A stretch of DNA of 64,000 nt, taken from assembly GCA_944474755.1 (NCBI GenBank), contig OX104112.1:84953756-85017755 (forward strand), read 5' to 3'. A program made the translations under genes and the position numbers. Below the pieces are notes generated by a model, which had not been told where the DNA came from, made no database searches, and was given only the letters and a program-made list of their open reading frames with translations. The DNA comes from Limnoperna fortunei. Taxonomy: Eukaryota; Mollusca; Bivalvia; Mytilida; Modiolidae. Positions 13,557-43,000 of the stretch are shown here, in pieces (positions within the stretch are counted from its first letter, which is position 1; each line of letters starts with the position of its first letter).

Positions 13557-15106
13557 CAAGTGTGGACACAGAAAAATGTCTCGCCTGCATTCCGCATCAG
13601 TAACGAAAATAAATTTCGTCATAAGCATTACGTAAATAGCATTAAATATCAGCAGCAGCCTGTATACAAAATATTGTCACCATATCCTGCATAGTTACAG
13701 GGAAACAGCCGTAACCCAAAAACTTTAACGTAGTCGCTGGACTGTGAAATTGAGGTCAAGGTCAGGTGGAACTTACCAGACAGTCATGTACTATTCATCA
13801 GCAACCTATACACCAAATATTGTCATTCTACCATGTGTAGTTACAGAGGAACTGTCGTAACCCAAAAACTTTAACGTAGTCGCTGGATGGTGAAATTGAG
13901 GTCAAGATCAGGTGGAACTTACCAGACAGTCATGTACTATTCATCAGCAACCTATACACCAAATATTGTCATTCTACCATGTGTAGTTACAGAGGAACTG
14001 TCGTAACCCAAAAACTTTAACGTAGTCGCTGGATGGTGAAATTGAGGTCAAGATCAGGTGACACTTACCAGACAGTCATGTACTAGTCATCAGCAACCTA
14101 TACACCAAATATTGTCATACTACCATGCATAGTTACAGAGGAACTGTCGTAACCCAAAAACTTTAACGTAGTCGCTGGACCGTGAAATTGAGGTCAAGGT
14201 CAGGTGACACCTACCAGACAGTCATGTACTAGTCATCAGCAACCTATACACCAAATATTGTCATCCTACCATGCGTAGTTACAGAGGAACTGTCGTAACC
14301 CAAAAACTTTAACATAGTTGCTGGACCATGAAATTGAGGTCAAGGTCAGGTGACACCTACCAGACAGTCATGTACTAGTCATCAGCAACCTATACACCAA
14401 ATATTGTCATCCTACCATGCGTAGTTACAGAGGAACTGTCGTAACCCAAAAACTTTAACATAGTCGCTGGACTGTGAAATTGAGGTCAAGGTCAGGTGAC
14501 ACCTACCAGACAGTCATGTACTAGTCATCAGCAACCTATACACCAAATATTGTCATCCTACCATGCATAGTTACAGAGGAACTGTCGTAACCCAAAAACT
14601 TTAACGTAGTCACTGGACCGTGAAATTGAGGTCAAGGTCAGGTGACACCTACCAGACAATCATGTACTAGTCATCAGCAACCTATACACCAAATATTGTC
14701 ATCCTACCATGCGTAGTTACAGAGAAACTGTCGTAACCCAAAAACTTTAACGTAGTCACTGGACCGTGAAATTGATGTCAAGGTCAGGTGACACCTACCA
14801 GACAGTCATGTACTAGTCATCAGCAACCTATACACCAAATATTGTCATCCTACCATGCGTAGTTACAGAGGAACTGTCGTAACCCAAAAACTTTAACATA
14901 GTCACTGGACCGTGAAATTGAGGTCAAGGTCAGGTGACAGGTGACTGACTGGCAAGTACTCATCATAAGCTACCTCTGGACCAAATATGATGGACCTAGG
15001 GCTTGGGCTTACAAAGATATGAAGCAAGATGTCAAGTGTTTACGCCGCCGCCGCCGGATTCCCATACATATGTCTCGCCTCCAGCGACTTTCGTCGCAGG
15101 CGAGAC
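13557..15106 (+). mobile_element. Satellite-bearing hairpin element ('pearl'-like), copy 1
   Basis: It begins CAAGTGTGGACACAG with TGTCTCGCCTGC and ends with the inverse GCAGGCGAGACA. The 3' end folds as TGTCTCGCCT ... GCGAC-TTTC-GTCGC ... AGGCGAGACA, preceded by a (GCC)n run. The core is about nine direct monomers of 146 bp (13640-14940). The structure matches descriptions of bivalve pearl elements and of Helentron-associated elements; no protein is encoded. Confidence 0.8.
13640..14940 (+). repeat. 146-bp satellite array, about nine copies
   Basis: TCATGTACTA recurs at 13784 and 13930 (146 bp apart) and on through the array. Copies are nearly identical, differing at a few sites (GTCGCTGGACCG / GTCACTGGACCG / GTTGCTGGACCA), which indicates recent amplification. 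Confidence 0.9.
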
Positions 15107-15126
15107 AAAAATGAATACTTATTCTA

Positions 15127-16060: not shown

Positions 16061-19000
16061 CTGAAAAAAAACATAACAAGAAATTAATAACAACACATGA
16101 ACTGTTTCAGCTAAAACTTGTCAAAGATGGGTTACATTCTTTTAAAACATATGGTTCACCTTACACAAAATGGCTGATAAGTCTTGTTAAGCAGGTTTCA
16201 ACTGGTAACTAAAACTTGTCAAAGATGGGTTACATTTCTTTAAAACATATGGTTACCTTAAACAAAATGGCTGATAATTCTTGTTAAGCAGGTTTCAACT
16301 GGTGTTGACAAATATTGTTTCTGAAGCCACAAAAGAGGTACATAAAAGTATGGTAAAAGATTCCAAGAAGAATATGGTAAATTGTTTTATATTAGTACTA
16401 GAAATGTAGTGGGCATTTAGTGGACTGGGTCAACAATGGTAGGGGATTAAGCTGGACGGGTCTCTACAAGGATAATCATGCTAAGCTGAAGTGGTATACA
16501 CAACAAATTAGGGAATTATTGATCTCACAAAGAAGGAAGGCACTGAGTGATAGAAACATCACATTGATGGATCGGTCTAAAATCAACATATTATCACTCA
16601 GTATTTGGAGCATAAAAAAACAACTTCATTAATGAATCTGCTTGGATGTGTATAAAAATACTGAATATTGAAACAACCTGCGGGTATTGAAATATTTTAA
16701 ATATATAATTTTAAAAGATTATTTCATAGGTCATTGTTGAAGTGTACAATATTTATGTTCTTTTCTTTGTGCAATTATAAAAATTGTGAGATGACAATGT
16801 ACAGTGTCTCAAAAAAAAAGTATGATTGACAAGTTTGCAGTTTAGTGTGCTTTCTCACCTCATCATGAAACCTGTGATTACACTCAAGCTTGACTGTAGT
16901 ATCCTGTGTCATTTCTTCATGACAAATCACACAGGGATCCTGTTCTTCCTCAAACATTTCCTCTCCTTTATAAGATGAAGGAGACGACGGCTCTGGGATA
17001 GCCCAAGAACTACTCAAACCTGGAGGTGGAGCCAATGTCTTAGTAGTCGGACTTGGACCAGGAAAAGATGGCTTAGAAATCACTGTTTGCACAGATCCCT
17101 TCAATAAAAAATTCATTACAGTACAGCTAAAGGTAATAAACAAGAGCAAATAAAAATGTTAACTTTGGAATAAAACATCTGCCACTACAAAGCTAAAATT
17201 TTATAAAAAAGACAATGAAATTGTATAAGTACCACTTTTAGTTGCAATTTGTTTATTGTTGGTGCACTGAAGTACTGTTAATAACTGACCCTGGACAAAA
17301 ACAGGTGTACAGGTAAGTATTTAGCTGTTAAAAAATCGCCTACAAAAACACTTTAAAACAATGTAGTATTTTCTTAAATCTTCCAAGCCTTGCACTTGCT
17401 CATCCATATTACCTGTGACAAAATAGTTGCAAAAAAGTTATTTATAATTCTTTGATTTTTAAAAACTATATAAATGATACATTTTTACAGGAATTTCTTT
17501 TATGTTGAGTCAGCAGTTCACACACAAAAACTGAAGTAACTTGTGAGAGATAGAATAACTAGTCATACATGTAGTCAAATGAATAATTAATTACCTGAGT
17601 CTGTTTTTTCTCGTGTGCCTGAATCATTGATGTCACTTGATTGGTTATTTCCTCAATAGTGAGACCAGATAGAGATCCACCACGTGACTGACGTAGTTGT
17701 TGAATTAACTGAGTATAAATACTTCTGAAAATATTAAAACAATCAATCAATTAGTGTTCCACATCTGAACATTGTATTGGATCTATATTGTTTTGTTTAT
17801 TTAAAGATCAAATATAATAAAATACATTCTTGACAAAACAACAAAAAAGTGTGGGCACAGTAAAATGTATGCCTAAGTTCCGCATCAGTAAAGAAAAAAA
17901 TTAATTCATCAGCAGAGTGTAAATAGCATTAAATTGTCATCATTTAAAATACACAATGCATGGTTACAGATGAACTGACCTAATCCAAAACTTGAAAGTA
18001 GTCATTGAACTGTGAAATTGAGGCCAAGGTCAGGTGACAGACCGGCAACTACTATTTAAGCTACCACTGGACCAAATTTAATGGACCTAGAGCTTAAGCT
18101 TACAAAAGATGTCAAGTGTTTATGCCGTTGTCGGCTTCATATATATATGTCTCGCCTACAGTGACTATTGTAGCAGGTGAGACACAAAAACATTAAGGGG
18201 ATGCAGAACATCATCCACCATTTTTTGTGAAAATTTCCAAATAGATGGTAAATTTAATAATAATTTCTTTCATTATTTATTTCTTAATTTCAATAAAATT
18301 TAAAACAATAATAAAAGTCTTGTACCTATATTATTACTTCAATTTATTAATGGTTGAAATAAAAAGTTTTCGTTTAAATGAGTTTGGTATTGGCAAAAAT
18401 AATGAAAATGAAATTTTTAACAAGGGAGGTAATTTTGACCAAAAAATTACCATTTTCAGCACTTTTGACTAGTGTTTTCCCAATAGACAAAAGTTAACTC
18501 GGAGACCCCTATTTTTCTTTCCATCACTAAAATGTATACCAATTGCTTGACATTATAAGAAAAGTTTAGAAAATTTCACTGAACTGGATTTTTGTAACCT
18601 TTTATTTTAGTGCTTTTTTATTCTCTTCTCTGAATAAACTATATGAAAATTAAATAAATTTTAGTGCTCAACCACTCGAAAATAAGCTGTTTTTTTTTTT
18701 TTTTTTGAATTATGATAACTTGTATAAAAACACTAACTACTTGGCAAATTTAAAGAAAATTCATTGACAAATTATTTTCAGTTAAAGTGGTCTGCATCCC
18801 CTTAAAAACTTCTATAATCATGTCTATAAACACACAAACAATGAGTTGATGCTTCAAAAATAATGCCCTGATAAATCAAGTGTGGACATGGAAAAATGTC
18901 TGGCCTGCATTCCACATCAGTAACAAATAATACATTTCTTCAACCTATATACCAAATATTGTCATCCTACCATGACTAAGGAACTGACTTAATCCAATGA

Positions 19001-22000
19001 ATTTTACATAATCACTGGACCATGAAATTGAGGTAAAGGTCAGGTGACAGTTGACCGACTGTCATGTACCTTTTATTAGCAAAATATATGCAAAATATTG
19101 TCGTCCTACCATGCACGATTACTGAGGATCTAACTTCATCCTAACTTTAATGTAGTCACTGGACTGTGAAATTTAGGTCAAGGTTAGGTGACTGGTGACA
19201 GACTGTCATGTACATTTCATCAGCAACATATATACCAAATATTGTCATCCTACCATGCATGGTTACACAGGACCTGACTTGACTCAAATAACTTTAACAT
19301 AGTCACTGGACTATGAAATTGAGGTCAAGGTCAGATGACAGTTGACAGACTGTCATGTACATTTCATTAGCAACCTATATACCAAATATTGTCTTCCAAC
19401 CATGCATGTTTACTGAGGAACTGACTTAATCCAATAATTTGATGTAGTCACTGGACTGCAAGATTGTGGTCAATGTCTGTTGGTAGGTGACCGACAGACA
19501 AGTACTCAACATACAATTGGACCAAATCTGTTTGACCTTGCTTAAGCTTACAAAGATATAAAGTAAATGTCAATGTGTTAATGTCATCGCCACCCGATTC
19601 CCATATAAAAGAGTATCGATTCAGGTAAGACCAAAATACAGAATGGGGGAAAAGAATGAGTAAATCTTCAAAGGAGATATGAAAAAAAAAATTGAAAGAA
19701 CATTAGAAAATCAAAGGGATTAGTAAAAACAAAAACTCTAGAGTAAAAAGTATCCAGTTTACAAAAAATATTTCTTGCTAAGCGCATATAGGTAACCACA
19801 CCCCTTGTTCTAAATTCAATCAACCATGAAATATTTGGAACAGACCTGCAGAAATTTACCAGTAAAGAGAACTTGTTATGTTGTAACTGTATACAGAGGT
19901 CCATAAAGATGTCGAGTCATCTTCATAAAAAAAGCTTCACCGTGAAGGTAAACCTGAGGAGGGCCAGACAAACAAACAAACAAATGAACAGACAGAAAAG
20001 TTATATGTTCCCCAACTTTCTTTGGCAGGACATAAAAAGGAATGGAGATTTATATTGGCTACATTAAACAAAATCTTAAAAGTGTAATTTACTGCTTTAA
20101 ATTTTCGGATCAAAAAGTTGTCCATATGTAATTTATCAGGAATAGAGTTAAATACACTTCCATCCAATGTTTTATCACAAAAACACTTGTAATTTCATTG
20201 ATCATAACAATACCTGTTATACTGAGGAAACATTGTGGTCAACCTCTGCAGTAGTTTTTCAAAGCTATTTTTAGGCTGATGTTGTCCATTAGATTGTTGA
20301 CTGTCATTCACAGACGATCTTGATATCTGTTGTCTAAGTGACTGTGGTCCCTGAGGTGGAACTAGAGGCCTTGGTGTCGACAGCAATGTTGGACCTTTGA
20401 CAGATATTGGAGTCAATCCTGATGTATTTGTGGTAGAAGGTTGGGTTGGTGATGGTTCTACTGAAGATGGCTGAAAAAAAATTTAATGTTTAATTATAAA
20501 AAGAGGCAATTATCCATACATTCACCTGTATAATTTTAAACACCATCCATTCTTGCTTAAGATTAACCAACTTGATGATATTTTCAATCAAACGGGTTTT
20601 TTAATGGGTAGTTTTTATTTTAACACACTCACATTGAAAATCTTAAGAACAGGTTGCAATCTGTAAGTTGTTTAAAAAATAAAACATAACAACTTTTCTT
20701 CATGTTTGCTTTTAATTATTTCGAGTTATATAAGCTACACTTTGATTTACTAAAACCACAACTAAAGATTGATTGATTGATTAATGGTGTTTAACGCCCG
20801 AGCAGCAATATTTCAGCTATATTCAGGCGATGAACATGAAACACAACTAAAGAAAAACATAAACCTAGCATATAAAGTAAATGCAATGCCACTTTGATTC
20901 AAACACAGAAAAGTCAAACGATATATTTTAAATTTCAAATTAATACATATAAGCAGGAAAGTCTTAAATATTTTTTTTAAATGAAATTTCCAACTGGCAT
21001 CATGTTTTTTAATTCAAATAAAGTGTATAAAACATGTTGAAAATCTTCAAAATAGATATTTAGTCCTCAATAATCCTAGAAATGCAGACTTGTTCAACAA
21101 TAGCATAAATGAAGGTAATAACAAGAAGTACTAAAGTGCTACAAATTATATGCCTGTCGCAAATTTTTCATTTTGTTAATAAATAAAGGGTCGTAACTCT
21201 GAAGTGGCTGAAGCAATTTGGCTGGTTATCAATATTGGTCCATAATCATTTTTGCAAAATTTCATGAAGATCGGACAACGACTGTTTGAGTCAGAGATGG
21301 GACATTGCTGTTTACATACCTTCGTTGTGTTCTCATCAACCTCTAGTCCTGTGGAGCTTGGTGTGAAAGATGGTGGTGGCGGGGGAACAAAAACAGTTGG
21401 CAATTCAGACAAGCATTTTCCATTCTGTACTTGTTTGATTTGTTCATCAAATTCCCCCTGCAATAATTAAATAAGTACATGTATTATAGGATTAAACACT
21501 GGGTTTTAGGAAATTATCAATGTGTAAACTCCGGCGACTCACTCACAAACTAAATAAAGTCCGAAGGACTTTATGTCAAGTTTGTGAGGGAGTCGCCGGA
21601 GTTTACACATTGATAATTTCCTAAAACACAGTGTTTAATCCTTATAATTCTGTGAAATAATCGTTGCGATTTTTAAAACAGCAGAAACAGTTACAGAAGC
21701 CCATCTAGACCTCAAAACGTACCTAGGCCGGAAAGCGTAGAGATATGCAAAACATAGTATCAAAGGAATCGCGGTTTTGTAGATATTGATAGGAAAAAAA
21801 ACAAAATGAAACACTAAATTGTATTTATATTATATTTTATTTGAAATCTCAATCGATTTAATTGGAATCATTGGGGCAGAGAAAACATTGTCCACCTCTC
21901 CCTGACGATACGCCAGGAGGACGCCCTCTTGTTTACATTGGATACTGAAAATAGTCCGCTCAGAGGAAATATCGATATATAAATTATCTGAGAAGACGCC

Positions 22001-25000
22001 ATTTAAGTGGTTTTATCCAATCAAAGCACTTAATTTAAATAAATTACAGCATGAATAGAATTATATAGAAATAAAAAGAAAAAACAAAGTTTGAGAAAGG
22101 AGTTTTTGGAAAAAAATTTTTTAATAAAGAACTATCAATTATAATGAAAAAAGTTTAGAAAAGGGCACAGCACTGATATTATTTAAAAAAAAAAACCTAC
22201 TTCTATTTGTCTTTCACGTCATTTTTATTGTAAACTATCAAACTTAAGAATTGTGTTATGAAATTAATGTGTAAGAAGGCAGATTAAACAGTAGTACAAA
22301 CTGCCACATATCTTTGAAGATTTTCTGTTAACCACTTCTTTAAGTATATCATCTTGATATATAAAATTATGATCTTAGTTTAAAAACAGTGTCTAAAAAT
22401 AGGTAAATATGTTTGAAATATGTCACAACATTTTAGTTAAAATACTATTTCAACTGAAAATCTGTGCTTAAGTCCGAGTACAGTTTCTGTACATTTATCA
22501 ACTTACCATTAGTTTCAGCAGAGCTTCTGTACATTTTGAAACAATAGAATCATAGAAGCTTAAAGCTTGAAGGATTTGTGAAGGTACTTCCTTCCCTTGG
22601 TCCTGATGTCTGAAACAAAGGATCAAATAATTAATGAATGTTTTACTTATATCAAACTAGCTGCATTTTGTCATTATAGATTTTTTTTTAATCCTTTAAG
22701 AAAACAATTCTTAACTGCATTGCATTTTTAAGGGGTGATAATGGGCTTAAGGAAGCTTTTCTGATCTACCTATTTTGAAATATGTAATTTTTTCTCTTCT
22801 TATATGGCATCCTTCATACACTTTGAGTACACATTAGATTTCTAATAAGCATACAGCCAGCTATGACTTCACAGTAAGAATTCTGATGTCATTATAAGCA
22901 TACAGCCAGCTATGACTTCACAGTAAGAATTCTGATGTCATTATAAGCATACAGCCAGCTATGACTTCACAGTAAGAATTCTGATGTCATTATAAGCATA
23001 CAGCCAGCTATGACTTCACAGTAAGAATTCTGATGTCATTATAAGCATACAGCCAGCTATGACTTCACAGTAAGAATTCTGATGTCATTATAAGCATACA
23101 GCCAGCTATGACTTCACAGTAAGAATTCTGATGTCATTATAAGCCTACAGCCAGCTATGACTTCACAGTAAGCATTCTGATGTCATTATAAGCATACAGC
23201 CAGCTATGACTTCACAGTAAGAATTCTGATGTCATTATAAGCTGAAAGTTTCTAATTTTGTTGATATTTCATAATTTTTTTTTTTAAGATACGTATATTA
23301 AATAAAATGACAAGTAATATATTTTCATGTCAATTTTATTTGCTTTACATGCTGTTTTGGGATATATCTTATTCAGATTTGAAAGCATCCTCTTAGACTT
23401 ACAGCCACTTTTGAAATTAAAAACATTTGTAACACATATTAAAATTTAAAATAATTTTTTATATTGGGTTCTATGCAAATGAGAACATGGTGAGACCTTA
23501 TATTTGTCTTCATTTTATAGCTCGCTATCACTTGATATAATGAAAATACTGACAAATATAAGGTCTGACCATGTACTTATTTGCATTTAGCCCACTAGCA
23601 ATAATCTTTTTCTAAATTAAAGTTAACAGTTCTTGCTCACTTAAGTGTTTAACAGGGACTACTACTTCACTTAGTGTTACTACTTATTTAATACGGTGGT
23701 ATAACAAAACACTAACTTGCATCCCTAATGAATACAAGCTTTAGCTATATCATTTATAAAAACTATGAACATTATGATGCTGGTGTTGTCTCAATACTTT
23801 TTAAAGAATATTTATGAAACATAACGCAATATATTTTACTATATTAGATAAAAACATGTATATTATAATTATTCTTTAGCTGTTTGAGTGGACAATGAAA
23901 TGGTTTAATTCGACCAAAATAAAATTTAAATATCAGTATACATGAAGCTTTAACAATTGTTTTTTGCAGTGGTTCAGATTTTATTAAATCTTACTTTTTA
24001 TGTAGTCCTTTCAAATGAATTACATGGTACATTGCTTCTTTCTTTGATCTCTCTAACATAGCAACAGCTGCTTGCTTTCTAAGGTTAAGAATTTCAACCT
24101 GCAAGTAAACATTGGTACATCTATAATAGCCCCGTAAACTGTGTTTCAGAAATAATTTATGGATACCATACTTTATTGTCGTTTTAACATGGGTGGGCAT
24201 TATATTCATGAATATTTTGCCCCGAGCGATAGCGAGTGTTAAGATATCATGAATATAATCCCCACCCATGTAAAAACGATAATAAAGTATGGTATCCATG
24301 AATTATTTCGATTCTAATTATGACAAATACGACAATCGGTACAGTGAAGCGGAATATAAATGTGCGCTAGTGAATGGCTGTTCCACATGAATGGCTCCAG
24401 TGTGTCATAATGTAGAGTGGTGGAAACATAATTTAATAGGCTGTATGTTGAATCGTGCAAATCTAAGAATTCAGACTAAACATAACAACTTTATGAACAG
24501 TAACGAATGATTATGGTTTAAAAAATTTAGTTTTTTAAATAAAATTTAAACGACTGCAACCAAAATCAACTTGCGCATGTGCGAACTAAATATATTGGAA
24601 TTTTAACACGGCTTTGTTTACATAGCGAAAGCAGGACGTCATATTAGAATATCAAATTTTTTGTGTATAAATATTTTAATTATGACTCGCATCTATAATC
24701 CTTATAAAAAATGATTCAAATAATTTTTAAACATAATAACATTAAAATTTTTTGAATATTTTAAATTCTATATTTTGTGAACATCATCATGCAGATTTAA
24801 ATGAATGTTTTTTCCGATGTATTCCTAATTCAAGTAAGGCAGAAGAGTCTGTAGATGTGGCTATTCAAGTATTTTCTTTTTTATTTGTTATAACATGTTA
24901 ATTATCTTGTCATCCTTTTCTTTTATCCGATTTTGAAATCTTGTTTACCATTTGTTTAACTGGTTCCAAACTAGTTTACGATTGAAAACATTAATCTTAT

Positions 25001-28000
25001 TCTACTGGAGACCATATATAAACATCCGGTCAGTACAAAAGTTTTTTCGCGAGGGACATTTTATATTGTTGAGTCAAATATATGTGGTCACTGGTTCTGT
25101 TTGAGGGGTGATTATTCATGAGAGGTAATTTAACATTACAAACACTTAACGCATCAGGATTTTGGCCAAATATAGAAGGTGGTGGATCGCGAGGGGATCA
25201 TTTAACAGAGAGAATACTGTATTTATTAATGCTGTAAAGTCATGGACAAGTGGCATGTCACAGCTTAAAACGGATACAGCCCATATTTTTATGTATTTAT
25301 TTAATTAATTACCTCTGCTTTTGTAGCCCTGTCTGTTTGTTTTTCTACAGCCATTCTAAATTCTTCTTGTCGTTTTTTAATTTCATCTTCAACATACTTG
25401 AACTCTTGTCTATATTTGAAAGCAACAAATGATAGGTCAATAAAAATTTGTTTCAGAGATTAAGTGAATGCTATATATGTCAAATTAGCAAATAATTTCA
25501 GGTATATCATTGCAATACCAACTTCCTGTGCCAGGCATATTTTCATATGTCTACTTCATCCTACATTACCATGCAGGGTTAGGTTTTACATTGAACACTT
25601 CAGTACTATACATAAACTCAGCACAATAACAATTTGATCTAAAGATTTCCATTAGGAGTTTCCATAGGGGTTGCTTAGTATGTTTTTTTATTTAGGTTAA
25701 TTAAAATATTTATATGGCCTGATTCTCCTCAAGGAGACAGAAATAAGTCAAAGTCAGTCAATTAAAATATATATTAATAGGATCAATTACATACAACTGT
25801 ACTCGATAACATACTGAATATTACCTTTCTTTTGACTTTTGCTTCATCAGCTCCCGTTTTTCTTCTTCTAGCTTTAAAATTTTCAGTTTTAACCTGTAAA
25901 AAATTAATAAAATGTCATTAATATATAGCAAATCTCTTATACTTTCTAAAATGTAATGTCATTAACTTAATCAGTTATTAATAAGGGAAAATTCTAAAGG
26001 GCAATACACAAAGTACATACAGAGGTGACTTGTTATCTTGAATTTCTGAGGAATGTTTTCCTGATAACTTGACCTTGTCGCCTGAAAGTTATCTAAATCA
26101 TGTCTTTCATACAATGACTAATCCTCCAAATGCGACTTGATGGATTGATTGAGTTTTACTGCCAAATAAAGCCCTTTTTATTTTACCCGGCAGTTGTATG
26201 CAGATAACAAAAAATACACCCGAGTGCACCCAATGGTTTTGAATGGGTTTGGGTTACTCTCTTTCTCTGTTATGTTTTTGGTTTTTGTGTTGCGTTTGTC
26301 TATATCCCGATTTTTTTTGTTTGTTTGTTTGAATGGTGTTTTAACGCCACTTTCAGCAATTTTTCAGCTATTTCATGGCGTCCAGTTTTTATTGAGGGAG
26401 GAAGCTGGAGTACCCGGAGAGGACCCCCGACCTGCGGTAGGAAAACTGGCAATCCTTGTCAATTAAGATTGGAGTCGAGTACACCCTGCCCTACAGTGAG
26501 AATCGAACCTGCAATCTCAGTGTTGACAGACCACGTGATCAATAGTAGACGAACTACCTTGACCACTTGGCCACCGAGGCCCCTCCCAATTCGTAACTGT
26601 CCCTTGGCTTTTGGCTCTTGTTGTTCGGTCTGTTTTCTTTGCTTATTTCATATATGGGCGGTTTAAAAAAAAATGACCCCAACAGGTCATGGTCCTCTAA
26701 TTTTGTCAAATTAATAGATATATTATTTCTAAATAGTTAAAAATGTATGTCTAGTTGTGGGGAACATGACTGCAAAAAATCTTAAAGATATCTCAAAAAA
26801 CAAAAAAGTTATGCCAAAAAAACATGCCAAAATTGTCAGGAGTGCAACACTTTTTTGTGACACTTTAAAAAAATGTCATTTTTTAAAAGGTCACCAAATT
26901 GTCAAATCTAGCAATATGTGCATAATTCTTTTTTTATTACAAAGTTTCAGGTGTAAACTTATTGAGAGATATAAAAAGAAAGTATGTGGCATTTTAAAAA
27001 GTATGAAAATATTGTTTTGAAAAAAAGATCTACCCTGTCAGGAGTGCAACACAAATTTAAGTTATTTTGCATTAAGTTCTTAATAGAATATTTATACTTT
27101 TGTTTTCAATAATTAAACCAAAACAAAATCATAAATATACCTTTGCTGCATCAAAACAGTCACAGCAATATACCCTAAAACTGGTAATCTGAACAGGGAC
27201 AACAAATAAAACAGATCACCCTCAACTGTCAGGAGTGCAACAAATGACATGTTTTTAGATATATTTTCTTTGTAATGTGACTTATTTTGTGTTTTTCTTT
27301 ACTTTTTAGCAGAAGCTATACAGAATTGTTGAATAAGTATTTCAGATGGCTGCTTTTACATTGATTTTTTTAATGTCAGGAGTGCAGCAGTTTTTTTTAT
27401 TGATCTTCAATTGTATCATAATATGAAATATTTTATGAAGATTTATTTATTATAATCATTTTAATTTAAGTTAAGGAAACTTTTCTTAGAAAATAATTGT
27501 TACAATAGCAGTTTATGAGCTTAAAATTTGATAAAAATTCATATTTTTGGTACAATTTAGTTGTCTCTCATGTTGATACCAACTGTTTTTTATAATCTAG
27601 AGACATATTCTAACAGATAATTGTTTTATATGTTCATTTTTCAATTGGTATTAAAAAAATATACTGTTAAATAACATATCTGTTTATTTATCTAAGATGT
27701 CCTGTTTAAATGTCATCCATGTAAATGTTGCACTCCTGACACAATATTTAAATGAATAGATGATTGCAACTATACTGCAAAATTATGGTTCTCCATATGG
27801 ATGGAACAAAGACTACAATTGGGAATGGTGTCTTTCAATTATAAAAACAGTTGGTATCAATATGAGAGCCAACTAAATTGTACACAATATTTGCATTTTT
27901 ATTAAATCTGAAGCTCAATTTTAAACAAACTGCTACACTCCTGACATTAAACAATGAATGTGAAAGGTATTATCATCCATCTGAAATATTTATTCAATGC

Positions 28001-31000
28001 TTCTGTGTAGCTTCTGGTGAAAAATAAAGAGAAAACACAAAATAAGAGAACTTTTAAAGAAAACATATCTACAATGTAAGAACATGTCATTTGTTGCACT
28101 CCTGACAGTTGAGGGTGCTCTGTTTTACTCTGTGTCCCTGATCAGATTACCAGTTTTAGGGTATCTTGCTGTGACTGCCCTGATGCAGCAAAGATATATT
28201 TATGATTTTATTTTGGTTTAATCATTGTTAACAAAAGGAAAAAATTTCTACCAAGAACTAAATGCAACGTTGCTTAAACTTGTGTTGCACTCATGTCAGG
28301 GTAGTTTTTTCAGAACAATAGTTTCATACTTTTAAAATGCAACATACTTTCTTTTGATATCTCTCAATTAGTTAACACATGAAACTGTGTAATAAAAAAA
28401 GAATTATGCACATATTGCTAGATTTGACAATTGTGTGACCTTTTAAAAAATGACATATTTAAGTGTCACAGAAAAGTGTTGCACTCCTGACAATTTTGGC
28501 ATGTTTTTTTGGCATAACTTTTTTGTTTTCTTATATATCTTCAAGATTTTTTGCAAACATGTTCCCCACAACTAGACATACATTTTTAACTATTTATAAA
28601 TAATATATCTTATTAATTTGACAAAATTAATGGACCATAATCTGTTGGGGTCATTTTGTTTAAACAGCTTATATATTAATTTTGTTCTTTCTCAAATATC
28701 CCATTGAAAATGTTAAGATATATGAAATTTGTTCCCAGCAATATCACAAATTACCTCAGTACTATTTAAAGAATGTATTTCCTTCTTTTATTTGTTTTAA
28801 CCTGGAATGTCAGGAGTGCATCAAAATCAGACTAAACATAGTACTTTTTCTACAACCTACCATTTTAAAATGATTTAACTTTATCATGAAATTTTTTTTC
28901 TCAATGGATGACTTATAATTACAATTTAATAATTTTGGTGCCATATGCAAAAATACATACTACTTTTGACTTAATAAAAATTTTAAGAGGTAGATAACAA
29001 AAGAATTTTCAAAAATTCTTGAAAAAAAATATTTTTTTGAAAAAGTACAATTGCATATTGTTCAAAATCTTGCACAGGAAGTCACTAGTATTTGTTACAT
29101 TGTTTAAGAAAACAGCAACAAGTTATATAAAACATAACATTGTTAAACTGAAGTAAAATGTATAAATGTTAATAGTGTTTTATATTTCAAAATTTGTTCA
29201 ATAAAATATTATAAAAACTTTATTTCTTACCTTTTCGTTAATTTCTTTTTTGATTTATTAACTTCCAACGTATTCACATTTGGAAATTATGAACAAAAAC
29301 TTGATATGCTCATGTTTAAATTTGACATTTTTTTCACATCTTGGGGTCATATTTTTTGAAACAGCCCATATACATTTTATTGAACTGTTAAACTATAATT
29401 CTGATAGCAAGATATCACACTGCAAGATGGAATGAAAAAATACTATTAGACATAGCAACCGACTATAATACTAGATATTATATTGTGTGATAAACTGGAA
29501 GGAGTTCACAAATCATTGATAAAATATTTTAATTTGCCTACAGACAACTGCTGAAACTAGAGGCTCTTAAGAGCCTGTATCGCTCACCTGACTTACAAAC
29601 AATTTTTTTAAGACTTTCTGGAAAATTTTGATATTAAATGCTAAAGAGTTTATGTGAAGATGCTGTTTCTATGAATGTTGCCATGTTGAATTTACAATCA
29701 GCAGTAGGAGTGTTTCTGAGAAGAAGCAGTTTTTATGTTTTTTCATAGGGTAGTATGTTAAGTGATGTTCCATAGTGGCAGCAATCTTGTATTTTGGATC
29801 GAAACAAAAAACTCAAAATTGGTAGAGGACCATACAATATCACATATCCTAAAATCTGCCAAGCTGTTTGTGAGAAAAAGAATTTTAAAATCTCAGCCAG
29901 TCAGAACGCATTTGCAGCTCTGGCAGCCATGTTGAATTTCCTATTGGCTCTAAACACTTACAATAATAAGATTACTATCTAAGATTCACTACTGCATTAT
30001 TTGGTTAAATTGTGTGGAACTGAGTTTCAGAGGAGAAGCCGTTTGTATAGTTTTCCCATAGGGTCCTATGTTAAGCTGTGTTCCACCGTGGTGGCCATCT
30101 TGGATTTAGATCGCCACAAAAACTCAAATTTTGTAGAGGACCATCTAAGGTACATTTGTGCAATATTTCAAATCAATCTGCTAAGCGGTTTGTAAAAAGA
30201 AGATTTTAGAAATCTCAGCCAATCAGAACCCATTAGTTGCCCTGGAAGCCATGTTCAATTTGCAATTGGCTCAAAAAACTCAAAATAATAAGATAAATAT
30301 CCATTGATCATTTCTTCATAATTTGGCTTCATTGTGTGGAACAGTTTCAGAGAAGAAGTTGTTTGTATGTTTTCCCCATAGGGTCCTATGTTAAACTATG
30401 TCCTGTGATGGTGGCCATCTTGGATTTTGGATCAGAACAAAATACTCAAACCTTGTAGAGGACCAAAAAGGTACATTTCTGCCATATTTTAAATCAATCC
30501 GCCAAGCAGTTTATGAGAAGATTTTTGAATTTCAGCCAATCAGAACGCATTAATGGCCCTGGAAGCCATGTTGAATTTGCAATTGGCTGGAAAAACCCAA
30601 AATAATAAGATAATTATCCAACCTTCATTTCCTTATTAATTTGGCTTCATTGTGTGGAACAGTTTCAGAGAAGAAGTTGTTTATTTGTTTTTCCTATAGG
30701 GTCCTATGTTAAACTATGTCCTGCAATGGCAGCCATCTTGGATTTTGGATCGGCACAAAAAACTAAAACTTTGTAGAGGACTATCTAAGGTACATTTCTG
30801 TAATATTACAAATCAATCTGCCAAGCAGTTTATGAGGAGAAGAGTTTTGAATTTCAGCCAATCAGAACACATTAACGGCCCTGGAAGCCATGTGAATTTG
30901 CAATTGGCTCGAAAAACCCAATACAATTAGACAATTATGCAACCTTCATTTCCTTATTAATTTGGCTTCATTGTGTGGAACAGTTTCATAGAAGAAGTTG

Positions 31001-34000
31001 TTTGTATGTTTTTCCTATAGGGTCCTATGCTAAACTTTGTCCTGCGATGGCGGCCATCTTGGATTTTGGATCGGCACAAAAAACTCAAACTTTGTAGAGG
31101 ACCATCTAAGGTACATTTCTGCAATATTTCAAATCAATCTGCCAAGCAGTTTATGAGAAGAAGATTTTTGAATTTCAGCCAATCAGAACGCATTAATGGC
31201 CCTGGCAGCCATGTTTCATATTTGATCAGCACCAAAACTCAATCTTTGTTAAGAACCACCCAATAAACATTCCTGCAAAGTTTGGTTCATATTGTTCAGT
31301 GGTTGTGGAGAAGAAGATTAAAATGTAAAAAGTTTACGGCCGATGACGACGACGGGCGCAAAGTGATGAGAATAGCTCACACTGACCCTTTGGGTCAGGT
31401 GAGCTAATAAAACTTTAAAGAATCTTGGAGAGGGTTAAAATATTAAACCAGTGGTTAACTTATAAAGCCTCATCTCTGTGTATCATACATGTAACTGAGT
31501 AAAACTTACTCTTTTTCGTTTGACATCAGCTGCGGCAGTTGTTGACTAATGTGATTCCATTCTAAATACAACATGTCATGTTTCTCTTGCATGGATTGTC
31601 TTTCCTTACCTAAAGCATCATTTTTTATACTAATTTCCATTTCTAGAGTCTATGAAAAAAGAAAAAAAAATTCTTCAGAAAAAATTCAATTTTACTACTA
31701 ACTTACCCATAGCAGATCTAAAAACAAATAAAAACCGTAATTTCAAATGTATTTGTAATAATACACTTGATGTAAAATAAGGCAGTAAAATGTGTCTATA
31801 CTAAATCTTCTGAAAGTTTTACTGTTTCTACCAATTTCACTTAAGTATCCACATTTCTTACCTTTAATTTGTGATCAGTTTCTTGCACTTGATTGGCCAA
31901 TTCCTGTTTTTGTGTTATAGCACAAGTCAAGTCTGATTGCAATAAATCATATTCCTTTTTCATTCTCTGAAATTCATCTTTTAGAGGTTCATATGGATCA
32001 GTGTTGATGGACACTGTACACGTTTCAACAAAAGCATGAACAGATTTATCCAATTGGAATTTCTGAAATGGATTACTAAAAACTGATGAGGTATAGTTTC
32101 CAGGAAATGTATTTAAAGCCTGAGGAGACGTAGTCATATTGCTGGAGGACTGAGTAACTGATATTCCAATAGACCAATTGCCAAACAGATCCGGTTTGGA
32201 TGTTGGTAAAAAAGGTGACTGATAATCACTATTGGAAGGCATTGGAGAAAAAATTGATGATGCCTGTGATGGAAACGATGATGTATTAGAACTCGCAGAC
32301 AAAAACGAAGACACAGTTGTAGTCACTGTTGGAAAAACTAACGAAGGTGTGAAAGACGTCTGAAAACCAGGATAGGACAAAGATTCACTTTGTGGCCATC
32401 CTGAATTAGATGTTGAAACACTATTGGTAAATGTACTATCACCATAGAATAAATTGTTTGATGTAACAACACTAAAAGATTCCGGAGTTAAAGATGGATC
32501 TGTAGTTTTCTTTTGATAAAAATTTTTCATATACTGTTCTGTGTAAGAATTTTTATTCGTTGTATATTCATAACCTGTTTCATTTGTTTTTGACGACCAA
32601 TTATTTGGTTTTTTGGATGTACGTTTGAAATCATTCCAAATGTCTTGGGAAACTTGCTTGTATAAGTCTTTTTTTTCCTTTTCTGTAAAACTCTTTCCAA
32701 ATGTCATATCCTTCATCACTTCTTCGGTCAGTTCCTGTACATACTGAGCATCTATTTTAAATTTTTCACGTTCTGCCGCCTTTGCTGTGTCCATCAGCAG
32801 TATCGAACCATTTTTGTCATTTGAATAAGAAGAGTAAGATGGCAATATTTCTGACTGTTCATTTTTACTCTCAAATTTGTCAGAAGGTACAGGTGAACCT
32901 ATAGGCCCGAAAATGTTTGGTGATGAATTAAGAGTTCTCTCCCTTGCTGGCCACATGCTTGAAGGCTTTATTTCAGGCATTTTTTGTTGATTTAGTTTTA
33001 TTTCAACAGATAAATCACTTCTTTCACTGATGTCAGATTTTGAACTACTGCGACTGATTGTGAAATCTGTTTTCAATTCGGGCTTTTCTAATTTGGAGTC
33101 CAATTTATTTAAATCCATTTTCTCTCTTCCAACAATTTTAGAATCCTCTCTACTGCTTACACTATCTCGATCTGAATTCCCTATACCCTCTTTGAAACTG
33201 TCTGAGTCTGATACATTGAAATCAAAATCATCTAAATCATCCATCCCTTTGTTTTTCTTTTGGATTTTTTTAGTTTTACTTTTAACAGGTATCAAATCTA
33301 TATCATCAATAGCATCCATATCCATGGAAACTGCAAGTTCAGTAGTTTTTGGTTTTTCAACTTTTTTATCCACTGAAATTTTGGGATATTCAGTTTTTTC
33401 AATCAGAATTTTTGATTCATTAGTTTTTTCCAATGTATTTTGATACTCAAAAGGAATATTTGGATCAAAATCAAAATCATCTAATGTATCCATGCATGAC
33501 ACCTTAAATTTCTTGGTACCAGATATATTATCCTGAATTTCAAGACTTTTAGAAACAGCCTCTTTTGATGTAGTGTTATTTGTTTCAAAAAGTTTGGCTG
33601 ACTGTTGTTTATCATTTGTCCAAGGATTTTCTAGCTTAAGTGGAACAGACTGACTACCATTCCCATTTCTAAGTTTTGAAGCTTTTGATGCAAAGCTCTC
33701 ACTTTGTTGTTTAGATATTTTGCTTGCTTTGTGAGCATCTTCTCTGAGACAAACAATCTCTCCATGCATTGCAAATTTAGTTGACTGCAGAAGAAATTTG
33801 CTGAAGCCTCCTACAGCATCCATTTTAGTTTTCGCATCAGGTGGGAAATCTTCCAACATTGATGTTATTTTAGCATCATTAATATGGAGTGGTCCATAAG
33901 CTTTAAGTAAATCCTCAAAAAACCTTTAAAAAAAAATAAAATTTTAGCAATTTTCCATCATTAAATAATTCTATTACCTATTTCTATGTTATTCACAAAG

Positions 34001-37000
34001 AGCAATCAAGTAATAGGCATATACATTTGTTTTGGTTTTTTTTGTTTTGCTAAAAAGATACTATTATAGAAACAGTACATGAAAAACTAATTCTAATCTG
34101 ACCCAATTTACCAACATCTAATGTAAAATTAACCTATAATTTAAGCTCTATATACACAGAGCAGATAGTGCAAATAATATACTATTCAATCAATCAATAC
34201 TATGTTGAGGACAGATTTCACCATATTTAAATAAACCTGCTACTTTAAAATGGTAAAATAAAATTTTCTGTTTAAAAAAATGTTTTTATTTCAAACAAAA
34301 AACTCGAATATTTAATTCAGAACTACTTATAAAATGTTTAATTTGTTTACTTAGTTGATCAAAAGAAAAATATTTCTATAAATAGTAATATTATTAAATA
34401 TTATTTAATAACTGCAATATCAAAGGGAGCTTACTCTATATTATATATATAAAATCTGAAAAAAATCATTTTTACAAGTGACAGATATTTGCAAAATATG
34501 TGTTTGCTTAAATATTTTTAATCTAAAAGATTTGTGATTCAACCAGAAAATTCACAAAAAGTAAATTTAACAATTAGTAAACAAAAGAAATATAATATTC
34601 AATTTGATATCAAAAACATTCTTTTTATGTGTGTACATTTTGAGTAGTCTCCCATGCTACATTACATTTAAAAGTCAATTTCTAAACAGTCAAAATTGTG
34701 TTCCCTGTGTCCCATCTCACCCATTTTTCCATTGATTTATTGTTTGTTAACTTCTTCCCGTCCTGAATATAGCTGAAATACTGCTCGCTGGACATAAAGC
34801 AAACACCCAATCAATCAATCAATCTAAACAGCCAAGTCCAATGTCTTATAAAATGTCTTAAAATCTGTAAGAACTAAATTAATGACAAATGTTGTGTGTG
34901 AATAAAAATGGACAAACTGCTTTCACATTCGTTGGTTTTTAAAAGTATTGTTTTTCATTTAAAGCAAAATGAAAAACATTTCAGCTATACGAGCCAATAA
35001 AAAAGACATGTTAGTACATGGTTTTTGACTTTAATAGTACTACCATACAAGAAGTATTACCATCAGATTGACAAGCCCCGTATTTCAAAAGCAAATTATT
35101 TATACAAACTACAAAAGCCCTATCTCCACTCAGACAGAAAATTAGTATGAAATGATATAAAGTGAAACAAGAAAATGTGTCTCTGCTACACTTATGTCCC
35201 ACCTGGCACATATAGGTAAACACCCCCTTTTTAGTTCAATCAAGCGTAAAATATTTAGCACAGTTCAATCAAGCGTAAAATATTTAGCACAGTTCAATCA
35301 AGCGTAAAATATTTAGCACAGTTCAATCAAGCGTAAAATATTTAGCACAGTTCAATCAAGTGTAAAACATTTAGCACAGTTCAATCAAGCATAAAATACT
35401 GTTTGTTAACTGTGTAACAGATTTCATGAAGATGTGAAGTCATCTTCATGAAAAAAAAGCTTCAATGTAATGGTAAACCTGATGTGGGATGGCCAAACTG
35501 ATGCACAAACGAATTTTACTTTACAAGTTTATTAAAAGGTAAAAGTTACAACTTCTTTTTTGCACATACAATTCTTGTCACCAAATTTGGGTAACATGAA
35601 CTCTTCGTGTTAAGAATATTGAAGACAAAACTGTATTTATTTTTTTGAATCAGGTTTTATGCAGTTTTTATCAATGTTTCAACAAATGAATTGTGTTTAA
35701 GTTGTTAAGGACGTCAGAGTACACAGCAAGAATCCTGACATTAGCAGGAAAACTGAAAAACCTTGTCAAATAAGAATAAAGTCCAGTACACCCTGCCAGA
35801 AGTCTGAAATGCCCATAATAATTAGTAAATCTCCAATTACCTAGACATCTCAGTCTAACATCAAGTCACATACAAACTTTTCTGTGGAGTTAGAAGGCAC
35901 TTACTCCAAAATAGGCCATTTATATAATATTTTGAACTACCTGTAGTATTTACATGATCCCAGTGGACTTGTATTATTCCATCTCCCAATGAAAAATCTG
36001 CTATTTAAGAAGATGGAAAAATAGTATTCTTCAATGGTAGATGGAATAATACAAGTCCACTGGGATCATGTAAATGCACAATAAAGGCAGTTCAAAATCT
36101 TATATAAATGGTCTAAAGAAAGCTACTAACCAGTACACTTATTGAGTATCAGATCGACAAACATGACCATACAGCATAAACAAAAAATAATATACAAGTC
36201 TAGAAGATTATGCAAGGATACAAATGACGGTGTTTCTTGTCAAAACTATAGACACAGACTGACTTTTAATTGGTTAATAATACTCTCAAATAATAAAAAA
36301 CTTAACTTTTATCAGTCTATAAAAGTCAAAACATGATTCCTCAACTGCGATCACATTACACAAACAATGCTGAGTAAATTAGATCAACAAAAAATGCAAT
36401 GCACTTTATAATCTTAATTGAATACTAGTTATATGCATATGGAACATATTAATTACAAGTATTGTATTTGATTTGTTCCATGCCTTTACATGCAGATAAA
36501 ATGACAAAATCTTGCATTTAAAATCTGCTAGTAAAATTAAAAAACCGATTTATTACTAAGCTGACTAATGTTGAACAAATATTAAAATACTACATAAATA
36601 CTTACGAAAATAGATTCTGAGCGATTTCATCAAACTGTGCCTTTGGATAATATGCTTTCTTTAATGGCTGTTGTTTAGTGTTTTCTACTGTTTTTGAACC
36701 AGGCATGGGTGGATTTTGTGTTCTGTCAAAAAAAGTAACTGCCTTTAAATTTGTCTAAATCTGTAAACTGTTACATATTGTATGTTTGATTGCAGTTTAA
36801 TGCCACTTCCATTATCCAGGGTAACCGGTGAAAACCTATGATATTCAACATGAAAACTTTTTAGAAAAAATTCAGGTTTGAGTAGAGCAAACCATGCCAC
36901 AGTAAGGATGAAGCCCGCAACCTTAGTGTCGACAAGCTGGTGATCTAGATGTCTACTACCGGACTACTATCTTAAGCCACCAAGGCCTATAACACTGTAA

Positions 37001-40000: not shown

Positions 40001-43000
40001 CCCCATCTGACTGACATCAGTATTCCACCAGTGACTTATCCGTATTTTGAGAACTTTATCAGTACTACACATGCATGCATTTAAAATAGCTACCAAAGCA
40101 TTGGTTATAACTCGATTAGATGTTGCCTCTGTGTCCTAATGTTAGTTTCCTTTTGAAGCATGGTCCGCAATGCTGTTTTGTATAATATCGTCTACGTCGC
40201 CGGTGCGCTTTTAACAACGACAATATCATATACAAGCTTCATTTTAACACCGATGCAACAATTTCGGGTGCAACTACTATTTTTCCGGATTAATATAAAA
40301 TCCGTAGATTTAAACACGAATCCGTATAGCGTATTTTCGGCCCAAAATCCGTGGAAAATACGGACAATCCGTACAAGTAAACAGCTCTGTAAATACTGTA
40401 GCTCTAAAAATGAAGAAGCAGATAGCAGGCCAAAACCTGTACACCTACCTCAGTTATCTGATCTGCAAATGGAGTACATTAGAGTTTGTTTTATAATGAA
40501 TTTCAAGGGACTGTCAGATGCATTTCGTTAAAAGCACATTTCGTTACATGAGAAATTCCATGTTTGATTTCCTACCTGGATAATTATATTATTTATCATG
40601 TAACAGACTGTTCTGCAAACTGACTGAAGTCCAACTATCTCCAATTTGGTGGAAATTTAATCAAAATCAAAATCCTTTTGCCTGCACATCTTCATTATGT
40701 ATATAAACATACTGCAATATAATGTTGCAGCCCTAAAACTGTAGAAGGAGTTTGGCAGACAAGCTAATCCACTATGTACATGAATTTTGCTTGCAATTCC
40801 AGCTACCATGGTCCATGAGCAACACAAACCAGGGATTTATAGTCTTAGTACTATGCAGTATTGATGCTACTGAGGTGACAAATGAAGGGTGCATAGCTGA
40901 CAGGAATAGGACAGATTGGCAGATTATTGAAGGGCGTTACAAGTAGGGGGATCATATATTGTGTTAAAAATAGATTAGTTATACTGTACAGTATATCTTA
41001 CGAGTCCTCTACCAATCATTCAATCCAATCAAGTTGCTTATTATTTTAAAATCAACATTATCACATGATTAATCAAAACCACAAAACAAATTGTAACTGT
41101 ACATGTGTATAAAATACTTCAAAGACCCTGTCTGGTGACCACTGGAAAAGGTCATTCTGATGAAAAACAATCTGTTGATTGAAAGCATTGGTCTAAGCTG
41201 TACAATGCAGATTTGAAGTAGGGAGAGACATTGCACTTTAGATTGAAAGCATTGGTCTAAGCTGTACAATGCAGATTTGAAGTAGGGAGAGACATTGCAC
41301 TTTAGATTGAAAGCATTGGTCTAAGCTGTACAATGCAGATTTGAAGTAGGGAGAGACATTGCACTTTAGATTGAAAGCATTGGTATAAGCTGTACAATGC
41401 AGATTTGAAGTAGGGAGAGACATTGCACTTTAGATTGAAAGCATTGGTATAAGCTGTACAATGCAGATTTGAAGTAGGGAGAGATATTGCACTTTAGATT
41501 GAAAGCATTGGTATAAGCTGTACAATGCAGATTTGAAGTAGGGAGAGACATTGCACTTTAGATTGAAAGCATTGGTCTAAGCTGTACAATGCAGATTTGA
41601 AGTAGGGAGAGACATTGCACTTTAGATTGAAAGCATTGGTCTAAGCTGTACAATGCAGATTTGAAGTAGGGAGAGACATTGCACTTTAAACTGACCTTGA
41701 AAGAGGAAGTTTCATTGAAGGTTTCTTTGCTTTACTCTGAGCCAGCTGTTCCCCCTTATCCAGTGTTATCTATAGAATAAATACAAATGAGGATATTTAA
41801 AGTATTGGATATTCTCCAGCACATATCTTACCATCTCCAATTATTTTAAATAGGATATAGACAAAAAAATGTGTTCACTCAAACTTGAAATATTTGGCAC
41901 AGCTCTAAATAAAAAAACCTTGACATAAAGGTAAAATCTGACATGGAAAAGAAGAATTGACAAAGAGACATATGTACAAACCAAAAATCTGTATGTCCCT
42001 TACTTTTGTTGGCTGGACATAAAATTGCCTTATTCTTTAATACTTTGTCTAAAACTTACAACTGAACATGTAAAATGCTTTTGACACACTACAAATATTG
42101 GTAAATAATTGATACTAATAAATTTATAAGCTATTTAGATATTGGTGCAAAGATTAACCATTGCAGCAATACTGTGAAACTCTGAATCTTCATACAACAA
42201 CCTAAAATGCATGTCTATATTTGCTCAAATCTTATACAATTAAGATTAATGAGATAGAAAAAATTTAATGTTACCTCCTTTGGAATAGAGTCCTGTCTGA
42301 ATATGATGATTTTGACAATACAGGACATACAGTCTGGTGTTGGGCATGGCTTCTCTAAGATATCCTGAAGTTAAACATAAAATGCAACACTATTTCCATT
42401 TAAAGACAAACTGTCTAATTCAGAATTGTTTTGTGTTTTTGCTTAAAAGCTATAGTTGAAGTTTTCTGCAACCATAGAGGACTGACCTTACAAAAATTGT
42501 CAAATATGTTAGTCATAGTTTTAAATATGCTCAACCAATTGTGTTTCAATGTTTATCAGACCTACTGAAACTTGATAATTATTTACAGGACAATAGGTCC
42601 AGTAAAGACTAGTATTTTACTGGACCTGCATAACTTTTACAGGACCTATCAGGACAGCCCCATTATAAAATTGTAAAAACATTTCTGTTTACACCGGAAA
42701 CCACGTTTTGTATAGACATGCGCAATCGACACTTCGTGATTTGCATATGGTTTGGTTTGGAAATTAATCAGAAAATCCATACAATGCAGTGGAAGTTGCT
42801 AAAATAGTATAGATTCTAAAACAAAACCCAAGATCACATTAAAATATCGTATTATATACTGTTATCTTTATTCCTAGGAAATATTAAGCCTTGTAATAAT
42901 TTTTGGCCAACTTTGATTGGTCATCTGGTTTTATACGGCTTCTGATTGGTCGTTATTTTTACCAATCTTAATTGATAGAATAGGGGAATTCCGCGATTTA

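What the first reader, a model, noticed from the sequence alone, without database searches (positions are those of the whole stretch)
26652..29373. 2.7-kb foldback element carrying a 15-bp motif ten or so times, mirrored in both arms
Both arms contain TGTCAGGAGTGCAAC about every 150-200 bp, reversed in the opposite arm, with little else conserved as strongly. Such regularly spaced identical motifs look like protein-binding sites or recombination units. There is no transposase, the terminal TATATGGGC...GACCCCA sequence occurs three times (26652, 28676, 29373), and I cannot place it in a known superfamily. Transcribed with the host intron it could form a dsRNA of about 0.9 kb.
Basis: partly seen in the sequence, partly recalled or inferred. 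Interest (0 to 1): 0.75.

Follow-up and report, generated by a model that had tools for sequence, protein, structure and literature searches.

The report
Foldback transposon with repeated 15-bp motif
It is one copy of a mobile DNA family in a mussel genome whose long mirrored arms carry the same 15-letter site many times, most likely docking sites for the enzyme that moves it, an enzyme that was not found here.

Summary
It is one copy of a dispersed, non-autonomous DNA-transposon family in the host genome, almost certainly the golden mussel Limnoperna fortunei. The genome holds 1,131 exact motifs and 218 exact ends (backward-pattern controls 0). Of 24 two-ended copies examined, 20 have matching 4-bp flanks (17 ATAT, 2 TTAT, 1 ATTT). 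The third, inner end is mostly decayed and looks like a former terminus. An older, non-foldback sister family keeps the motif while much of the sequence between has diverged: 13 near matches in 7.0 kb, against at most 5 for any of 341 other G/C-richer 15-mers. I read the motif as an array of recognition sites for the machinery that moves the family, as in Galileo; binding was not tested. No transposase was found and the superfamily stays open: Sola2 is a lead, and TA or TTAA duplications do not fit. Against strong functional claims: inside the family the motif is only weakly, and by some measures not, better kept than its surroundings. New variant of a known kind.

The parts
26652..26655 (.). 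left 4-bp target-site duplication (ATAT)
   Evidence: sequence; flanks of 24 two-ended copies
26656..29367 (+). whole non-autonomous transposon, 2,712 bp, GGGC...GCCC
   Evidence: 14 of 44 other stretches compared hold a copy covering >85% of the element
26656..26682 (+). left terminal inverted repeat
   Evidence: 218 exact pattern matches in the genome, control 0
26656..27605 (+). left foldback arm
26834..26848 (+). motif, exact
27036..27050 (+). motif, exact
27227..27241 (+). motif, exact
27374..27388 (+). motif, 1 mismatch (GCAGC, the family majority state)
27606..27828 (.). loop between the arms
27727..27741 (-). motif in the loop, exact
27829..28670 (-). right foldback arm
27932..27946 (-). 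motif, 2 mismatches (family majority state GTAGC)
28093..28107 (-). motif, exact
28284..28298 (-). motif, 2 mismatches (family majority state TGTCATGAGTGCAAC)
28478..28492 (-). motif, exact
28645..28670 (-). inner, decayed terminal inverted repeat (AAGC for GGGC), followed by ATAT at 28671-28674
28675..29367 (+). 0.7-kb tail, also present in the full-length copies
28808..28822 (+). motif in the tail, 1 mismatch here, exact in the family majority
29341..29367 (-). right terminal inverted repeat
   Evidence: 29341-29372 vs 26682-26651, 90.6%
29368..29371 (.). right 4-bp target-site duplication (ATAT)

Best explanation
The feature is a copy of a non-autonomous cut-and-paste DNA transposon family (shown: dispersed full-length copies, common inverted ends, 4-bp target duplication, no coding frame of note). 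The 15-bp motif is most likely a recognition site for the DNA-binding part of a transposase, or an accessory protein, supplied by an autonomous element that I did not find (inferred). Several sites near the ends would let the protein load cooperatively and give specificity to a short terminal repeat that is largely A runs. The foldback probably arose when an ancestral linear element of about 2 kb acquired an inverted copy of its left half, which doubled most of the sites. The decayed inner end suggests that the mirrored unit once ended there, and that the larger unit then moved by pairing its left end with the tail's right end, after which the unused inner end decayed (inferred from the inner end still lying next to ATAT, and still reading GGGC in 2 of 29 inner ends found).
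For:: 551+580 exact motifs in the genome, control 0; 114+104 exact ends, control 0; among the 100 listed I count 19 convergent pairs, 9 of them spanning 2,629-2,718 bp; 14 of 44 other stretches cover >85% of the element; these and the window copy differ from the majority by 1.8-6.2%, and the majority state is the exact motif at 7 of 10 sites; 4-bp flanks match in 20 of 24 two-ended copies, among them the non-palindromic TTAT/TTAT (L108, L119) and ATTT/ATTT (L122); an older linear sister family (9 other places, 97-323 bp of the 381-bp query, 71-79% identity) with a related end and + motifs in register, mostly the variant TGTC[T/C]GGAGTGCAAC or one further step off; 13 motif matches (up to 3 mismatches) in 7.0 kb of four sister copies; the best of 341 other 15-mers with at least 6 G/C has 5 (mean 0.25), and 500 shuffled motifs average 0.056 with maximum 3; motif G/C columns diverge half as much as other G/C columns. 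Precedent: Galileo THAP-domain sites in long repeats, bound in vitro (PMC3688188, abstract and passages).
Against: No autonomous element or transposase was found, so the binding protein is hypothetical. Overall motif divergence within the family (2.2%) is not clearly below the rest (2.8%; 384 of 2683 slid sets as low). In an earlier set of 6 copies the motif was no better kept (pairwise identity 0.931 vs 0.927). Between the two arms of the majority sequence the motif is not special (58/60 vs 720/771; 5428 of 20000 random sets as good). Some A/T-run 15-mers equal or exceed the motif count in the sister copies (33 of 2148 at 3 mismatches, 2 at 2 mismatches); that comparison left out the first 300 bp, which do align between the families. 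One sister copy (L121) was found through an exact motif, and the query that found the others spans two motif sites. Four of 24 two-ended copies lack matching flanks.
Confidence: 0.55

Rival explanations
1. The motif binds a host protein (a transcription factor, an architectural factor or a silencer) that the transposon exploits for expression or chromatin state, not its transposase.
For: Sites lie 147-205 bp apart across the arms and one lies in the loop, farther in than one expects of sites needed only at the ends, at a spacing near that of nucleosomes (the nucleosome comparison is recalled); they are kept in a sister family.
Against: No gene to be expressed was seen in the copies examined. 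Motif hits that were followed up lie in transposon copies: of 18 small loci taken from listed motif hits on C1, 17 match the element and 1 is the sister family; hits on other contigs were not surveyed in this way.
Confidence: 0.25
2. The motif is a passive remnant: the arm grew by duplication of a 150-200-bp unit and the motif is what is left, or gene conversion keeps the copies alike.
For: Regular spacing; motif columns are not clearly better kept than others within the family (and the all-column test).
Against: Flanks of the six contexts show no residual similarity beyond one A, and the motif outlasts its flanks across two families; conversion limited to 15 bp in unlike surroundings is not expected.
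Confidence: 0.12
3. The foldback works at the RNA level: intronic transcripts form a long hairpin that feeds dsRNA editing or small RNAs, and the motif is a processing or targeting site.
For: Predicted hairpin of 26651-28676 (2,026 bases): minimum free energy about -1068 kcal/mol on the + strand, 704 pairs spanning more than 300 bases, longest perfect stack 69. The element lies between two exons of what looks like a TTC3-like gene on the - strand.
Against: The linear sister family has the motif without the long hairpin. No match to Rfam. No expression data were available.
Confidence: 0.08

Closest known systems
Galileo (P superfamily) and Drosophila Foldback-like elements
   Same: Very long internally repetitive inverted repeats with several copies of a short site; in Galileo the THAP domain binds about 70 bp from the end and at two further sites (PMC3688188, abstract and passages)
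   Different: Here the sites sit in unlike surroundings and not in tandem repeats, and persist in a linear sister family; the target duplication is 4 bp (P type 7-8 bp per PMC5199201, passage); no THAP transposase seen
Mutator-like elements with multiple long terminal inverted repeats (plants)
   Same: Multi-copy elements that carry an extra terminal repeat (PMC3310237, abstract and passages)
   Different: Those are mostly tandem repeats in Mutator elements; here an inner, mostly decayed end lies 0.7 kb from the used one, and the target duplication is 4 bp (Mutator 8-9 bp, recalled)
Sola2 superfamily
   Same: 4-bp AT-rich target duplications including ATAT and ATTT (PMC3627910, passage); present in bivalves (PMC10294476, passages)
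   Different: No Sola2 transposase seen here; the two TTAT copies do not fit AWWT; GRG ends of Sola2 are recalled, not from a call
Kolobok and KolobokP
   Same: RR...YY ends; KolobokP is rich in bivalves and has an extra pair of ends inside (PMC9587614, abstract and passages)
   Different: Kolobok duplicates TTAA; KolobokP has direct terminal repeats around a transposase gene; neither is seen here

Membership tests
TIR DNA transposon, non-autonomous | Dispersed copies with common inverted ends | tested here: met
TIR DNA transposon, non-autonomous | Fixed-length target-site duplication | tested here: met
   4-bp match in 20 of 24 two-ended copies; 17 are palindromic ATAT and so not pair-specific, L108 and L119 (TTAT) and L122 (ATTT) are; M26640849, L123, L128 and L131 do not match
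Tc1/mariner | TA duplication | tested here: not met
   copies ending GCCC|TTAT (L108, L119) and GCCC|ATTT (L122) do not fit a TA model with TGGGC ends; the 17 ATAT copies alone could not decide
piggyBac / Kolobok | TTAA duplication | tested here: not met
   no TTAA at the 4-bp flanks of the 24 two-ended copies
Sola2 | AT-rich 4-bp duplication (AWWT; ATAT, AAAT, ATTT reported) | tested here: inconclusive
   ATAT in 17 and ATTT in 1 of 24 fit; TTAT in 2 does not fit AWWT; 4 do not match
Sola2 | Sola2 transposase in an autonomous relative | tested here: inconclusive
   20 frames (19 from fetched stretches, 1 from the window) against Pfam: only LINE-type domains and a WD40 gene; no Sola2 profile or seed was at hand
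P superfamily (Galileo) | 7-8-bp duplication | tested here: not met
   matching flanks are 4 bp
P superfamily (Galileo) | THAP-domain transposase | not tested
   no autonomous relative to test
Foldback-type architecture | Long inverted arms with short loop | tested here: met
   arms of about 950 and 842 bp, loop 223 bp; but the unit also has a 0.7-kb tail outside the foldback
Helitron/Helentron | No target duplication (recalled) and no terminal inverted repeat pair (Helitron1: 5'-TC, CTRR-3', 3' hairpin; passage) | tested here: not met
   inverted ends and 4-bp duplication present

The most novel reading that the evidence does not exclude
A superfamily not yet described (or a strongly diverged Sola2 lineage) of animal transposons recognises its ends through an array of one 15-bp site spread over about 1 kb at nucleosome-like spacing. 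The foldback family became the more numerous one because an inverted duplication doubled the array and an alternative end pairing captured it with a new right end.
Probability: 0.2. Interest if true: 0.6.

Novelty: new variant of a known kind. Interest (0 to 1): 0.4.

Why it matters
Why some non-autonomous elements have very long inverted repeats is open; the Galileo work proposed multiple transposase sites as the answer on the basis of three sites. This family gives a cleaner natural experiment. One short site is kept in six unlike surroundings and in a linear sister family, so the site, the arm length and the foldback can be told apart. It also appears to record in sequence how an extra end inside an element was once usable and then fell silent.

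Tried and rejected
Motif as protein-coding: I saw the motif in different frames by eye in the list, and no frame inside the element exceeds 95 aa; that frame has no Pfam match. Motif as a known RNA: no Rfam match at gathering thresholds over 26500-29500. Motif in print: the held library has no paper with the 15-mer in either orientation; 7 papers hold a 12-base part, seen only as a listing and apparently as primer letters. Arm-to-arm conservation as evidence for the motif: not significant. Bathymodiolus locus L004 as an autonomous relative: its 85-aa exon has 135 close relatives in metagenome protein sets but no match in the host genome, and no second motif or second copy turned up in the assembly that holds it. 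The stretch shared around the L004 motif is short (30 bp at 90%, found through 16 exact bases), so L004 is only a hint that the motif exists in another mussel. The other 50 prokaryotic and 14 viral matches to the 16-mer look like chance. Autonomous element: six long or lone spans (L100, L126-L130) turned out to be this same family with later insertions, or in L100 only its right 1.2 kb; five single ends (L131-L135) gave no transposase either. Frames were judged by eye first; 20 frames of 95 aa or more (L126 and L130 had none of 100 aa) were then run against Pfam: LINE endonuclease, reverse transcriptase and PHD domains in L128, reverse transcriptase in L134, a WD40 gene in L132, nothing in the rest. 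Frames of L100, L124, L125 and one of L134 were not run. Only part of the 218 ends was looked at. TA target duplication: rejected by L108, L119 and L122. Pattern TGTCAGGAGTGCAACAG: 24 places, at least one of them (L102) site 4 of the same family in its exact form.
Full report
What is there. The motif TGTCAGGAGTGCAAC is present 10 times with up to three mismatches in the window, all in this element, against 1.14 expected. The foldback runs from 26,656 to 28,670 with arms of about 950 and 842 bp and a 223-bp loop; its outer parts are the most alike, 89-94% in the three outermost gap-free pieces against 76-91% farther in. A 0.7-kb tail follows and ends in the terminal sequence at 29,341-29,367. 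In the six contexts that are independent of the mirroring, 14 of the 15 bases agree in 6 of 6 and one in 4 of 6, while apart from one following A the bases on either side do not agree.

Which genome. The window lies in a 1,335,373,924-base assembly of 285 contigs whose contig 1 is 115.4 Mb and contig 7 is 97.05 Mb. The published golden mussel (Limnoperna fortunei) assembly has 1.34 Gb, a largest scaffold of 115 Mb, N50 97.05 Mb and L50 7, in 309 scaffolds (PMC10541798, passages). I take this as the host, by inference; the contig count differs. An exon with the TTC3-like winged-helix domain lies at 31,841-33,925 on the - strand, and a partial RING match below Pfam's cut-off at 16,775-17,158. 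The element therefore probably sits in an intron.

A family. The exact motif occurs 551+580 times in the genome and its backward control 0 times. The end pattern TATGGGCNGTTTN{7,13}ATGACCCCAA occurs 114+104 times, control 0; among the 100 listed I count 19 convergent pairs, 9 of them 2,629-2,718 bp apart, 4 shorter and 6 longer. The right 201 bp gave 337 first-look candidates, 40 scored, all of these 96-100% alike. Of 44 other stretches compared, 14 cover more than 85% of the element; these and the window copy differ from the majority by 1.8-6.2%, the window copy by 2.1%. Exact motifs average 5.2 per copy in those 15 (78 in all), so 1,131 motifs correspond to roughly 220 full-copy equivalents; the set was partly chosen by motif, so this is rough. 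Of 18 small loci taken from listed motif hits on C1, 17 match the element and one, L121, matches it over about 75 bp only.

Ends and target. A script took every stretch with an outer end on each side: 24 copies out of 47 stretches. Twenty have the same 4 bp on both sides: 17 ATAT, 2 TTAT (L108, L119), 1 ATTT (L122, whose left end is itself damaged). Four do not: M26640849 (ATAT/ATAA), L123 (ATAT/CTAT), L128 (TTAT/TAAT) and L131 (ATAT/TATA, with a damaged right end). ATAT is palindromic and cannot by itself tell a 4-bp from a 2-bp duplication. The TTAT and ATTT copies can: they end GCCC|TTAT and GCCC|ATTT, which fits GGGC...GCCC with a 4-bp duplication and not TA. In the window the element is therefore 26,656-29,367, flanked by ATAT at 26,652-26,655 and 29,368-29,371.

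The third end. The inner end at 28,645-28,670 reads AAGC where the outer ends read GGGC, and is followed by ATAT. In the same 47 stretches 29 inner ends were found: 21 AAGC, 5 GAGC (two of them in one tandemly duplicated stretch), 1 ATGC and 2 GGGC (L113, L118); 28 of the 29 lie next to ATAT, L107 having AAAT. An end that is intact in a few copies, still next to ATAT, and ruined in most looks like a former terminus that went out of use. My reading, inferred: the mirrored unit once ended there, and the unit that now moves pairs the left end with the tail's end. Plant Mutator-like elements with extra terminal repeats are a parallel (PMC3310237, abstract and passages).

The sister family. A search with the left part of L121 found 9 other places at 71-79% over 97-323 bp, and 30 weaker matches of 70-75 bp, those that I could place being copies of the present family. 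Three of the 9 were fetched (L140, L141, L142). With L121 they form an older family. L141 shows it without a long interruption: about 2.0 kb, no foldback, no frame of 100 aa inside, and a related end. Its commonest motif form is TGTC[T/C]GGAGTGCAAC or one further step off; the exact variant occurs 10+7 times in the genome, control 0, some of them in copies of the present family. In the alignment the + motifs fall in register with those of the foldback arm, while most sequence between sites 1 and 4 does not align convincingly. Counting instead of aligning: 13 motif matches at up to 3 mismatches in 7.0 kb of four sister copies; 341 other 15-mers with at least 6 G/C, taken from the element without its first 300 bp, average 0.25 and reach at most 5; 500 shuffled motifs average 0.056 and reach at most 3. 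Among all 2148 such 15-mers, 33 reach 13 or more; the top ones are A/T runs.

Conservation inside the family. In six copies the motif columns are no better kept than others (0.931 vs 0.927). Between the arms the motif is not special (58/60 vs 720/771). In 10 copies fetched by their ends and not by the motif, measured against the majority of the 15, motif columns diverge 32/1443 against 702/24834; split by base, G/C columns 18/769 against 296/6418 and A/T columns 14/674 against 406/18416. Twelve of 5000 random G/C column sets and 64 of 2683 slid sets are as low as the motif's G/C rate; for all columns 384 of 2683 are. This is weak support for constraint in the lineage that was moving, and none for constraint after insertion.

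Mechanism. Shown: a dispersed family with inverted ends, a 4-bp duplication, no coding frame of note in the copies examined, and a site kept in many contexts and in a sister family. Inferred: a DNA-binding protein of the mobilising machinery reads the site, and multiple sites give specificity to ends that are otherwise largely A runs. Galileo is the precedent, with its THAP domain bound at three places in a 1.2-kb repeat (PMC3688188, abstract and passages). Not shown: the protein, the binding, the autonomous partner. Frames in the fetched stretches were looked at, and 20 were run against Pfam, with only LINE-type domains and a WD40 gene found; only part of the 218 ends was looked at.

Superfamily. 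Sola2 has AT-rich 4-bp duplications including ATAT and ATTT (PMC3627910, passage) and occurs in bivalves (PMC10294476, passages); that its ends begin GRG is recalled. This is a lead, not a placement: TTAT does not fit AWWT, and no enzyme was found. TTAA (piggyBac, Kolobok), TA (Tc1/mariner) and 7-8 bp (P type) do not fit.

RNA. The 2,026-base foldback folds at about -1068 kcal/mol on the + strand with 704 pairs across more than 300 bases and a longest perfect stack of 69, so a transcript would be a strong dsRNA; nothing here says that it is made.

Verdict. Real, and a transposon of a known general kind with an unusual layout. The site array is the interesting part, because the sister family shows that the site outlives its surroundings.

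Noticed in passing
26340-26584, also near 56602-56851, 44106-44346, 12628-12732, 13043-13139, 35746-35797: A SINE-like repeat of about 245 bp with many copies; it sits about 70 bp left of the element and is inserted inside other copies of the element (L099 and L104), where 10 and 13 bp of element coordinates are covered on both sides, which looks like target duplications.
   Followed up: partly
13503-15116 and 57547-59014: Two arrays of the same 146-bp tandem repeat 42 kb apart, inner units mostly about 90-98% alike between arrays, with partial relatives at 18996-19440.
   Followed up: no
22747-23334, 41044-41811, 29738-31192 and 47861-49284: Further tandem arrays of 49 bp, 64 bp and of 165-167 / about 320 bp; the last kind recurs in L100 and L073.
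   Followed up: no
L129:4297-8760: A 4.5-kb insertion at the inner end of a copy, with 9 bp of element coordinates (28676-28684) covered on both sides; may be another transposon that hit there by coincidence.
   Followed up: no
L004:838-1231 (contig NZ_CAHJWD020000328.1): A contig filed under a Bathymodiolus brooksi gill symbiont looks like mussel DNA; its 85-aa exon has 135 close relatives in metagenome protein sets (120 listed, three of them named 'UPF0297 family'), which suggests host repeat contamination.
   Followed up: partly
G000:C3:30195381-30265832: Six ends, from at least four copies of the element, within 70 kb; perhaps a duplicated stretch.
   Followed up: no
G000:C1:24653661-24656885: Two nearly identical fragments of the family 2,878 bp apart in tandem, sharing flanks.
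   Followed up: no
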